Positions 1,571 through 8,884 of a stretch of 14,460 nt of DNA are shown here, in pieces. Source of the DNA: Nocardioides sp. (lineage in GTDB: Bacteria; Actinomycetota; Actinomycetes; Propionibacteriales; Nocardioidaceae); assembly GCA_029264225.1 (NCBI GenBank), contig JARICB010000157.1, forward strand, positions 1 through 14,460. The letters are read 5' to 3'. Positions within the stretch are counted from its first letter, which is position 1, and every line of letters starts with the position of its first letter. The notes below the pieces were generated by a model. It saw only the letters and a list, made by a program, of their open reading frames with translations. It was not told the origin of the DNA and made no database searches. The position numbers and the translations under genes are program-made.

Positions 1571-1646
1571 GGGGGTGTGGCGCAGCTGGTAGCGCATCTG
1601 CATGGCATGCAGAGGGTCAGGGGTTCGAGTCCCCTCACCTCCACCA
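1571..1646 (+). tRNA. tRNA-Ala (anticodon GGC)
   Basis: The full cloverleaf can be folded by hand. The acceptor stem is GGGGGTG (1571-1577) with CACCTCC (1636-1642) and includes the G3-U70 pair that is the alanine identity element. The D stem is GCGC (1580-1583 with 1592-1595). The anticodon stem is TCTGC with GCAGA (1597-1601, 1609-1613), and its loop ATGGCAT gives anticodon GGC at 1604-1606, reading GCC codons. The T stem is AGGGG with CCCCT (1619-1623, 1631-1635) around a loop that begins TTCGA. The discriminator base is A1643, and the CCA end is encoded (1644-1646). It has 76 bases and no intron. Confidence 0.98.
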
Positions 1647-4922: not shown

Positions 4923-6179
4923 TCAGCTCCCCGCGGGTACGTAGTAGCGATACTCGATCATGAAGCTTGACACGTCGTAGGACGCTGGTGGCGTGGTGCT
5001 GAATCCGAAGACGACCGGCTGCGTGGCCTTGGGGAGGTAGGGGTAGCGGTTCAGGTGCACCTTGGACCACGCGGTGGTCGTGGTGCTGTCGCCGACTGCG
5101 GTCTTGGTGTAGTTGTCATCGGTGGAAAGAACGCCGATGTCGGCGCCGCCAACAGTGGTGGGTCCACCGGTGGCGCTGACCCGGTAGGTGTCGACGGGGG
5201 CGGGGAGGACCGGTGCCGGCATCGTCACGTCGATGCTGACCGGGCGGTCGAGGCCCGACAGATCAGGACCGGTCGGCCGGAAGCTGAGCCCACCGGGGAA
5301 TCGGTCGCTCGCTACGGGCTCGACGTGAACTCCACAGTCGTTGCACCCGCCGCCGGACGAGATGTACTCCGAAGGCACGTCGGCCCGGACCGTCTCGGTC
5401 GATGTCTGCTCGACGAGCTGGTCGTGGGAGACAGTGAGACGCCGGGTGGCCCGGAAGGGGTTGCCCGCCTCGTCCACGGTGAAGAACCTGGCCCGGTAGG
5501 TGCCCGTTGGCAGAGCACGGCCTGACTTGGCCAGGCCCTGCCAGGTGAAGCTGGGTGCTCCGTCGTTGCGACTGGCGTCCTTCCAGACGACCTTCCCGCT
5601 GTCGTTGATGATCCGAAGCCGGGACCGTGCCTGGATGCGGTCGGTGTAGAGCCAGTCCTCGTCGTCCCAGTCCGCGTAGACGAACGTGAGTTGCACGGCG
5701 TCCCTGACGAGCGCCGCCCTGGGGTAGACGGTGCGACGCGAGGTGATGAGCTCACCGGAACCGTCGGTGTCCAGGCGTACCAGGGCCACCTTCTTGGTCA
5801 CGCTGCCGCGTGCCTTGGCGGTGATGCGGATGACGTACCTGTCGGAGTCGCCCATCATCCGTCCTGCTCGACTACGCCCGTTCCAGGTGAACACGTGCTG
5901 GCCGACAGCGCGCCGGCCGAGGGACGAGCGGCGGATCACCCGACGGCCCTTGAGGACTTCGACGCTCACCTGGGCCGGAGCGCCGAGACGGTAGCGGACT
6001 CGGGCCACGTCCTTTCGCTGGTCGTGGTTGGGGGAGAAATCGATCAGGTCGTTGGTGATCGTGAGGGGTGGCCGCTGCGCCCCGTGCTCGGAGGGCACCT
6101 CCGCGTGTGCAGGAGTCGTCACCGCCATGGCGCTGGCGATCATCAGTGAGAGAGCGAGCAGGTTGACCATGGATGGCAT
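4923..6179 (-). CDS. Secreted protein with FlgD-type Ig-like repeats, function unknown
   Basis: The 418-residue product begins with a Sec-type signal peptide: a hydrophobic stretch NLLALSLMIASAMAV (6-20) and a likely cleavage after AHA (24-26). No lipobox is seen. Residues 46-64 read LIDFSPNHDQRKDVARVRY, a variant of the FSPNGDG start of FlgD/gliding-type Ig-like domains; the first domain continues to FTWNGRSRAG and YVIRITA (97-121). A second copy ends with FTWQGLAKSGRALPTGTYRARFFTVDEAGN (211-240). The C-terminal part (260-418) is not recognised; it holds the only cysteines, C279 and C282 (CNDC), and ends in RYYVPAGS. The start at ATG 6179 is chosen because GGGGGAA precedes it and the signal peptide follows directly; the frame is open further upstream but that part is not protein-like. 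It is a monocistronic gene convergent with the DUF4870 gene, probably an exported or wall-associated surface protein. Confidence 0.85.
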   Translation of the reverse strand: MPSMVNLLALSLMIASAMAVTTPAHAEVPSEHGAQRPPLTITNDLIDFSPNHDQRKDVARVRYRLGAPAQVSVEVLKGRRVIRRSSLGRRAVGQHVFTWNGRSRAGRMMGDSDRYVIRITAKARGSVTKKVALVRLDTDGSGELITSRRTVYPRAALVRDAVQLTFVYADWDDEDWLYTDRIQARSRLRIINDSGKVVWKDASRNDGAPSFTWQGLAKSGRALPTGTYRARFFTVDEAGNPFRATRRLTVSHDQLVEQTSTETVRADVPSEYISSGGGCNDCGVHVEPVASDRFPGGLSFRPTGPDLSGLDRPVSIDVTMPAPVLPAPVDTYRVSATGGPTTVGGADIGVLSTDDNYTKTAVGDSTTTTAWSKVHLNRYPYLPKATQPVVFGFSTTPPASYDVSSFMIEYRYYVPAGS

Positions 6180-6241
6180 GAGTTCCCCCGGAGAGCGGCT
6201 CTCTTTGTGACGTGCCTCCCGTTTCAAAGGTTGCCCGACGT

Positions 6242-6270
6242 ACGACATCGGCGCCCGGCGGCGGTAAGAT
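6242..6270 (+). promoter_or_regulatory. Candidate promoter of the leuS leader transcript
   Basis: ACGACA (6242-6247, four of six matches to TTGACA) is separated by 17 bases from TAAGAT (6265-6270), identical to the -10 proposed for tRNA-Ala. Seven bases later comes the A of the leader-peptide ATG (6278), which is the expected distance to a transcription start. The leader would then be leaderless. This agrees with the lack of any ribosome binding site before it. Confidence 0.6.
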
Positions 6271-6277
6271 GGCTGCC

Positions 6278-6316
6278 ATGACCACGCAGTCCCTGCTTCT
6301 TGGACAGCTGCGCTGA
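6278..6316 (+). CDS. Leucine-rich leader peptide of the leuS attenuator
   Basis: A 12-codon frame encodes MTTQSLLLGQLR. Four of twelve codons are leucine, three of them consecutive (CTG CTT CTT, 6293-6301). CTT is a rare codon in such a GC-rich genome, which would make stalling sensitive to charged tRNA-Leu. The frame could also be entered at ATG 6269, three codons earlier, but that ATG overlaps the -10 hexamer. The stop codon (6314-6316) lies inside a 12-bp hairpin, and a terminator follows 21 bases later, all upstream of leuS. Placement of a Leu-codon run before a Leu-tRNA synthetase gene is the classical logic of ribosome-mediated attenuation. Such attenuators have been predicted for leuS in some Streptomyces. 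The peptide itself needs no function. Confidence 0.75.
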   Translation: MTTQSLLLGQLR

Positions 6317-6335
6317 CTTCAGCAGTCAGCGCGGC
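6307..6335 (+). promoter_or_regulatory. Attenuator hairpin covering the leader-peptide stop codon
   Basis: GCTGCGCTGACT (6307-6318) pairs with AGTCAGCGCGGC (6324-6335) through twelve pairs including one G-T, with a five-base loop TCAGC. The left arm holds the last Leu codon, the Arg codon and the stop codon of the leader peptide. A ribosome stalled on the Leu run (6293-6301) would mask part of this arm, and one at the stop codon would melt the hairpin. It is thus the candidate 1:2 structure. By eye I do not find a convincing alternative pairing between its right arm and the terminator. Confidence 0.65.
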
Positions 6336-6336
6336 C

Positions 6337-6360
6337 ACCCCTCTCTGCGAGGGGTTTTTT
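6337..6360 (+). terminator. Intrinsic terminator in the leuS 5' leader
   Basis: CCCCTC (6338-6343) pairs with GAGGGG (6349-6354) around the loop TCTGC. A flanking A-T pair extends the stem, and six T follow (6355-6360). This is the only terminator in the window with a full T tract, and it lies 46 bases before leuS in the sense direction, with no complete gene before it. That position fits an attenuator rather than an end-of-gene signal. Confidence 0.85.
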
Positions 6361-6406
6361 CATGTCCTGACCACGCAACAACTGCACGGATCGACGAAGG
6401 AACCCG

Positions 6407-8884
<2,478 letters not shown>

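What the first reader, a model, noticed from the sequence alone, without database searches (positions are those of the whole stretch)
6242..6406. Complete candidate leucine attenuator with a leaderless leader peptide before leuS
Seen: promoter-like ACGACA-17-TAAGAT, then ATG seven bases later, a 12-codon frame with Leu-Leu-Leu and a fourth Leu, a 12-bp hairpin over its stop, a terminator with six T, and then the leuS ribosome binding site. Known: ribosome-mediated attenuation uses control codons for the cognate amino acid, and attenuators have been predicted before leuS in some Streptomyces. Inferred: low charged tRNA-Leu stalls the ribosome and allows read-through into leuS. The unusual point is that the leader peptide seems to be translated from the very first base of the transcript.
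Basis: partly seen in the sequence, partly recalled or inferred. Interest (0 to 1): 0.75.

Follow-up and report, generated by a model that had tools for sequence, protein, structure and literature searches.

The report
Leucine-sensing attenuator before leuS gene
Just before the gene for the enzyme that loads leucine onto tRNA sits a short RNA switch, apparently read by the ribosome from its very first base, that probably lets the gene be transcribed only when leucine-charged tRNA runs low; the same kind of switch has already been described in Streptomyces.

Summary
Window 6242-6406 holds a -10 box, an ATG seven bases later, a 12-codon Leu-Leu-Leu leader, a 12-bp hairpin over its stop, an abutting terminator with six T, then the leuS ribosome site. 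The element precedes leuS in 48 of 56 loci of the genus and order, own genome included. Both hairpins covary. The leaderless layout holds in 77 of 77 testable loci. The key codon is the third Leu, CTT in 74 of 78, against 0.2-1.9% of Leu codons in nearby genes. It is not new in kind: leuS attenuators were predicted in Streptomyces (PMC1262725), and a leaderless leuS leader, MRAVRLLLSEPR, was reported in S. lividans (PMC8079986); nine phylum loci carry that peptide. New here: the spread, the near-invariant CUU, the tight geometry shared with some leuA and ilvB leaders, and the missing classical switch. The leucine response is inferred.

The parts
6242..6247 (+).
   Evidence: present but no -35 motif tested is enriched in 77 aligned promoters; probably not a -35 element
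6265..6270 (+). -10 box TAAGAT
   Evidence: TANNNT at 6-7 nt from the leader start codon in 77 of 77 testable loci
6278..6316 (+). leaderless leader ORF MTTQSLLLGQLR*
   Evidence: start codon 7 nt after the -10; the spacing is kept while the distance to the Leu run changes by codons
6293..6301 (+). control codons CTG CTT CTT; the third, 6299-6301, is the most constant
   Evidence: third codon CTT in 74 of 78, CTC in 4 of 78
6307..6335 (+). hairpin 1, 12 bp, over the leader stop; base 5 nt after the last Leu codon of the run
   Evidence: fold; 6 of 9 modelled pairs show changes on both sides
6337..6360 (+). intrinsic terminator (7-bp stem, 5-nt loop, six T)
   Evidence: 4 of 7 modelled pairs show changes on both sides
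6397..6401 (+). leuS Shine-Dalgarno AAGGA
   Evidence: sequence, 5 nt before ATG 6407
6407..8884 (+). leuS, leucine--tRNA ligase, 825 aa
   Evidence: ORF; NCBIfam TIGR00396 leuS_bact, 901.8 bits, cut-off 548.4

Best explanation
This is a ribosome-mediated transcription attenuator that makes leuS expression depend on charged leucyl-tRNA. Transcription starts at or within a base of the leader ATG (6278), so the ribosome loads on the bare 5' end. With enough Leu-tRNA it passes the CUU codon (6299-6301), runs to the stop and pulls hairpin 1 open; the terminator forms and transcription ends near 6360. When Leu-tRNA (mainly the GAG isoacceptor that reads CUU/CUC) is short, the ribosome stops at CUU with its front edge at the base of hairpin 1; hairpin 1 stays folded, at least in its upper part, against the terminator and weakens it, or delays polymerase, so leuS is read. 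Shown here: anatomy, conservation, covariation, promoter-to-start spacing, codon choice. Inferred: premature termination, the leucine response, and how hairpin 1 affects the terminator. The confidence given is for leucine-controlled attenuation with a leaderless leader; for the abutting-hairpin step alone I would say about 0.4.
For: Element before leuS in 48 of 56 loci of the genus and order (33 of the 48 were model rows), 38 of 80 further leuS loci (26 of the 38 were model rows), and 22 of the 30 phylum loci fetched, window included. Covariation: 10 of 16 pairs with change on both sides, 0 of 500 shuffles as high, slid controls 1-3 pairs. Leaderless spacing 77 of 77, 8 of 8 model-only loci and 21 of 22 leuS loci of the phylum sample. 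CTT as third Leu codon in 74 of 78 against 0.2% in 24 carrier leuS genes and 1.9% in window genes. Of the 8 loci that lack LLL, 7 keep CTT and 1 has CTC at that place. tRNA-Leu(GAG) present in the genome. In 9 of 30 phylum loci the leader is exactly MRAVRLLLSEPR, the S. lividans LeuL2 peptide reported as transcribed leaderless with hairpin and U stretch (PMC8079986, section 14 part 1 read). The stall-to-read-through logic has experimental support for ilvB1 in Mycobacterium tuberculosis, where changing the control codons abolished induction (PMC13236596, section 10 part 1 read).
Against: No conserved structure excludes the terminator: its predicted probability has a median of 0.97 with no ribosome, stalled on any Leu codon, or at the stop, so the switch step is not explained by base pairing alone. 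Hairpin 1's base itself is mostly open (median pairing 0.16) when the third Leu is in the A site (footprint assumed). 8 of 56 loci lack the element. No expression data for this organism. In S. coelicolor, changing control codons of ilvB had no effect and leuA behaved unlike classical attenuation (as stated in PMC1262725).
Confidence: 0.85

Rival explanations
1. Classical trp-type attenuator: an antiterminator helix that shares bases with the terminator forms when the ribosome stalls.
For: PMC1262725 labels antiterminator hairpins in the Streptomyces leuS leaders (legend read, figure not seen); in C. glutamicum ilvBNC antiterminator and terminator overlap by about three boundary bases and mutations support the switch (PMC11857589, passages read). 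Hairpin 1 and the longest contiguous terminator stem overlap by 1-5 nt in 26 of 78. The terminator's 5' arm is more than half paired before its 3' arm is made in 6 of 78 with no ribosome, 6 of 78 stalled at Leu 3 and 10 of 78 at the stop.
Against: No overlap in 52 of 78; in the window one unpaired base separates the two hairpins and both form in the same fold. The terminator's 5' arm is free in most loci (median pairing 0.02-0.33 over the five states), and it is least paired, 0 of 78 over half, in the stalls at Leu 1 and 2.
Confidence: 0.3
2. The Leu run acts as RNA: it pairs with the terminator 3' arm (antiterminator when not covered by a ribosome) or with the leuS Shine-Dalgarno, as in the leuA LEU element.
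For: In 38 of 78 the best terminator-free fold pairs at least four bases of the terminator 3' arm with the Leu run, and in 2 of 78 the terminator-free fold is as good as the best fold.
Against: Observed runs pair no better than CUC/CUG synonyms with the terminator arm (better in 39 of 78) or with the leuS upstream region (better in 26 of 77); the sign of control would be reversed for the terminator-arm version.
Confidence: 0.07
3. A constitutive leaky terminator or a processed 5' region without sensing; the short ORF is incidental.
For: No expression data were available.
Against: Start-codon spacing, reading frame, CTT codon and both helices are conserved together.
Confidence: 0.04

Closest known systems
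LeuL2-leuS attenuator of Streptomyces lividans TK24 (PMC8079986)
   Same: leuS target, LLL leader, leaderless transcript, hairpin and U stretch; the covariance model finds leaders encoding the identical peptide MRAVRLLLSEPR
   Different: different genus and peptide; in the phylum loci with that peptide the run is CTT CTG CTT, here CTG CTT CTT; no transcript data here
Candidate leuS attenuators of S. coelicolor and S. avermitilis (PMC1262725)
   Same: leader peptide, hairpins, terminator before leuS
   Different: described there as classical with an antiterminator hairpin; leaderless start not mentioned in parts 1-2 of 3 that I read
ilvBNC attenuator of Corynebacterium glutamicum (PMC11857589)
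   Same: start codon one base from transcription start, CUU among control codons, antiterminator hairpin abutting the terminator
   Different: three hairpins with a shared GCC boundary; mixed branched-chain codons; other gene
Leaderless cysteine attenuators of mycobacteria (Canestrari 2020; seen only as a reference entry in PMC13236596)
   Same: leaderless short ORF with control codons
   Different: cysteine; PMC1262725 reports no conserved terminator hairpin before mycobacterial cys operons
LEU element before leuA (PMC1262725)
   Same: leader with Leu run
   Different: pseudoknot and pairing of the run with the leuA Shine-Dalgarno; PMC8079986 notes no typical terminator before S. lividans leuA

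Membership tests
actinobacterial leaderless leuS attenuator (S. lividans LeuL2 type) | upstream of leuS with a leader ORF bearing a Leu run | tested here: met
   window; LLL leaders at 78 leuS loci; gene confirmed as leuS
actinobacterial leaderless leuS attenuator (S. lividans LeuL2 type) | hairpin and U-tract terminator between leader and gene | tested here: met
   6307-6360, conserved and covarying
actinobacterial leaderless leuS attenuator (S. lividans LeuL2 type) | transcription starts at the leader start codon | tested here: inconclusive
   -10 spacing fits in 77 of 77; 5' end not mapped in this organism
actinobacterial leaderless leuS attenuator (S. lividans LeuL2 type) | same RNA family by sequence and structure | tested here: met
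   one model finds the window at 74 bits and nine leaders encoding MRAVRLLLSEPR at 67-72 bits
ribosome-mediated attenuation in the broad sense | read-through rises when the cognate amino acid is short | not testable with these tools
   needs RNA data
classical trp-type attenuator | antiterminator mutually exclusive with the terminator | tested here: not met
   none conserved in five ribosome states over 78 loci by folding with an assumed 13-nt footprint; not filed here as trp-type
T-box or other Rfam leader | match to an Rfam family | tested here: not met
   only a tRNA in the window at gathering scores; at 6100-6500 three matches far below their gathering scores, E 2-6.3
LEU element of leuA | Leu run pairs with the gene's Shine-Dalgarno | tested here: not met
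   runs pair no better than synonymous runs: better in 26 of 77

The most novel reading that the evidence does not exclude
Actinomycetota share a compact attenuator design, used for leuS, leuA and ilvB, in which one slow CUU (or CUY) codon at a fixed 5 nt from a hairpin decides the outcome, and the hairpin works not by stealing terminator bases but by sitting directly against the terminator or by pausing polymerase until the leaderless ribosome passes CUU. That would be a ribosome attenuator without a mutually exclusive antiterminator.
Probability: 0.35. Interest if true: 0.6.

Novelty: new member of a known kind. Interest (0 to 1): 0.4.

Why it matters
It supports the leuS attenuator by comparison well beyond Streptomyces, supplies an alignment and model for an RNA without a match in Rfam, names one codon and one hairpin boundary as the testable parts, and raises a mechanistic question: how a hairpin that abuts, yet in two thirds of loci does not overlap, a terminator could control it.

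Tried and rejected
Rejected: the -35 box; the fourth Leu at codon 11 as a conserved control codon; Leu-run pairing with the terminator arm or the leuS Shine-Dalgarno as the reason for CTT; pairing of CGCGG in hairpin 1 with CUGCG in the terminator loop as antiterminator, rejected by eye because hairpin 1 changes to CCGUAC types while the loop does not follow (listings). A small leader hairpin that shows the Leu codons in its loop was seen by eye in the window; it looked absent in the few relatives that I compared by eye, and was not tested further. Rfam gave nothing. Literature searches with Nocardioides + attenuator + leader peptide (one paper, which only counts terminators there) and leucyl-tRNA synthetase + attenuation + leader peptide + Streptomyces (two reviews, listing only) found no paper on this element in Nocardioides; only the held open-access library was searched.

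Dropped before counts: of 58 genomes (own included), G031 had no strong leuS match and G004 only a fragment whose upstream I did not fetch, leaving 56 loci; one of the 56, L136, has a weak, split match and may not be a true leuS. L034 and L104 were left out of the LLL list by hand because their LLL frames were elsewhere (the model later found the element in L034 with an FLL leader, not in L104); farther LLL frames in L031 and L055 and a nearer one in L089 were ignored; L033 lacks upstream DNA, so 77 of 78 promoters were testable. Of 80 genome-contig loci, L074, L081 and L107 hold under 100 bases upstream and could hardly show the element. The same genome can occur in both sets (L022 and L039 for one). 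My choice of leader start used the -10 score; the check counts all TANNNT and all in-frame ATG/GTG in 40 nt, though anchored on the same Leu runs. The 59 rows of A1 were thinned from 78 at 93% likeness. The phylum search used stricter filters, which lose weak matches.

Full report
WHAT IS THERE. The gene is leuS by NCBIfam (TIGR00396, 901.8 bits, cut-off 548.4). Folding the leader gives a 12-bp hairpin 6307-6335 and a 7-bp terminator 6337-6355, one base apart, z = -4.29, 0 of 200 shuffles as stable. The terminator is among 7 sites of a simple scan of the window (4.3 expected by shuffling); the strict sigma-70 scan found no promoter. Rfam has no credible match there.

RELATIVES. leuS-like proteins were found in 58 of 58 genomes of genus and order, own included; 56 loci were used. 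A further 80 leuS loci came from named genomes, capped at the best 80 of at least 596; by their titles they are Nocardioides and Marmoricola, Actinomadura, Nonomuraea, Planobispora and similar, Propionibacteriaceae, Agromyces, Cryobacterium and others. A reading-frame scan for LLL leaders found 78 loci over both sets (some genomes occur in both). All 78 gave a terminator by the script's stem and T rule, and by eye the folds printed with them show hairpin 1 next to it.

STRUCTURE. Alignment A1 (59 of the 78, thinned) folds to two helices; 95.7% of cells pair, 10 of 16 pairs change on both sides, 85 such cells against 21.4 in shuffles (0 of 500 as high), and 1-3 pairs when partners are slid. There is no gap column between the third Leu codon and the base of hairpin 1 in the 59 rows, so the distance is 5 nt in each. 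A covariance model R1 finds the window at 74 bits, 48 of 56 loci of genus and order and 38 of 80 named loci (one weak reverse-strand hit in L033 ignored). Of these 86 loci, 59 were rows of the model. Eight of the 86 lack LLL: their leaders read FLL, SLL, ALL, VLL, FLL, LRL, SLL and RLL, so the first or second Leu can be absent.

LEADERLESS. TANNNT ends 6 nt (61) or 7 nt (16) before the start codon in 77 of 77 testable loci, while the distance to the Leu run takes the values 18, 19, 21, 22, 24 and 27. Counting every TANNNT and every in-frame ATG/GTG in 40 nt gives 77 of 77 at 6-8 nt, 0.46 on average after shuffling. The 8 model-only loci agree (8 of 8), and so do 21 of the 22 leuS loci in the phylum sample; L159 has none. 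Start codons are ATG in 57 and GTG in 21 of 78. The -35 is not conserved; instead G is common at 2 and 4 bases before the -10 (87% and 79%).

CODON. The third Leu codon is CTT in 74 and CTC in 4 of 78; the second CTC 41, CTT 33, CTG 3, TTG 1; the first CTG 65, CTC 10, CTT 3. In the 8 extra loci it is CTT in 7 and CTC in 1. In the 22 phylum leuS loci it is CTT in 21 and, read by eye in L159, CTC in 1. L049 (CTG CGC CTT) and L156 (CAG CGC CTT) keep CTT without a neighbouring Leu codon. Background CTT is 0.2% of 1610 Leu codons in 24 carrier leuS genes and 1.9% of 318 in window genes. The genome (84% complete) has tRNA-Leu with anticodons GAG and CAG among the 7 long tRNA hits checked of 42 found. 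That GAG reads CUU and CUC is general knowledge. Theory and data for other bacteria say that control codons should be those whose tRNA loses charge first (PMC1183508, passages read). Sequences are related by descent, so the counts are not independent.

SWITCH. With the first bases blocked as by a ribosome (13 nt from the A-site codon, my assumption), the base of hairpin 1 is paired with probability 1.00, 0.66, 0.16 and 0.00 (medians) for stalls at Leu 1, 2, 3 and the stop. Terminator probability stays at a median of 0.97 in all five states (minimum 0.10 with no ribosome, 0.73-0.86 in the others). The terminator's 5' arm is more than half paired before its 3' arm is made in 6, 0, 0, 6 and 10 of 78 (no ribosome, Leu 1, 2, 3, stop). 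So passage over CUU is what opens hairpin 1, but in most loci nothing in the pairing makes the terminator conditional. Hairpin 1 lies 0-3 nt from a six-pair terminator core in 70 of 78 and overlaps the longest contiguous terminator stem in 26 of 78. The C. glutamicum ilvBNC work describes a working attenuator with such a boundary (PMC11857589, passages).

SPREAD. In 396 genomes of the phylum 38 match at E <= 0.001, own included. Of the 30 loci fetched, 22 precede a leuS homologue (the four of these checked fit TIGR00396 best, as fragments below its cut-off), and for the other 8 the long ORF examined downstream is leuA in 3, ilvB in 4 and prephenate dehydratase in 1; the 8 weakest matches were not fetched. 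In 9 of the 30 the leader is MRAVRLLLSEPR, identical to S. lividans LeuL2 (PMC8079986). Two leuA leaders (L158, L160) and one ilvB leader (L163) also have TANNNT 7 nt before the start; for the other five non-leuS loci the script found none.

KNOWN. Seliverstov 2005 (PMC1262725, parts 1-2 of 3 read) predicted leuS attenuators in two Streptomyces. PMC8079986 (section 14 part 1) reports the leaderless leuS leader from RNA-seq. Hence: new member of a known kind, with a broader and sharper description than I found in print (searches; of the papers listed I opened seven in part).

Noticed in passing
L011, L014, L016, L018 (upstream of leuS): Four of the eight loci without the attenuator have TATCCT 6 nt before the leuS GTG itself (read by eye), as if the gene became leaderless when the element was lost.
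   Followed up: partly
L158, L160, L161 (leuA) and L163-L166 (ilvB): The leuS model also finds leaders of the same layout before leuA and ilvB in other genomes of the phylum.
   Followed up: partly
L162: A similar hairpin-terminator pair with a VLLIT-like frame lies upstream of a prephenate dehydratase gene, where Leu or Ile control makes no obvious sense.
   Followed up: no
window 6308-6310: Codon 11 is CTG (Leu) here; aligned rows mostly have CCG bases there. The change turns a C-G pair of hairpin 1 into U-G, 1 of 59 rows.
   Followed up: yes
window 4923-6179, minus strand: Divergent gene with a signal-peptide-like start (MPSMVNLLALSL...; start judged by eye) shares the intergenic region with the leuS leader promoter.
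   Followed up: no
window 1571-1646: tRNA-Ala (GGC) gene.
   Followed up: no
window 6269-6271: A second in-frame ATG overlaps the -10 box; it could serve only if transcription began upstream.
   Followed up: partly
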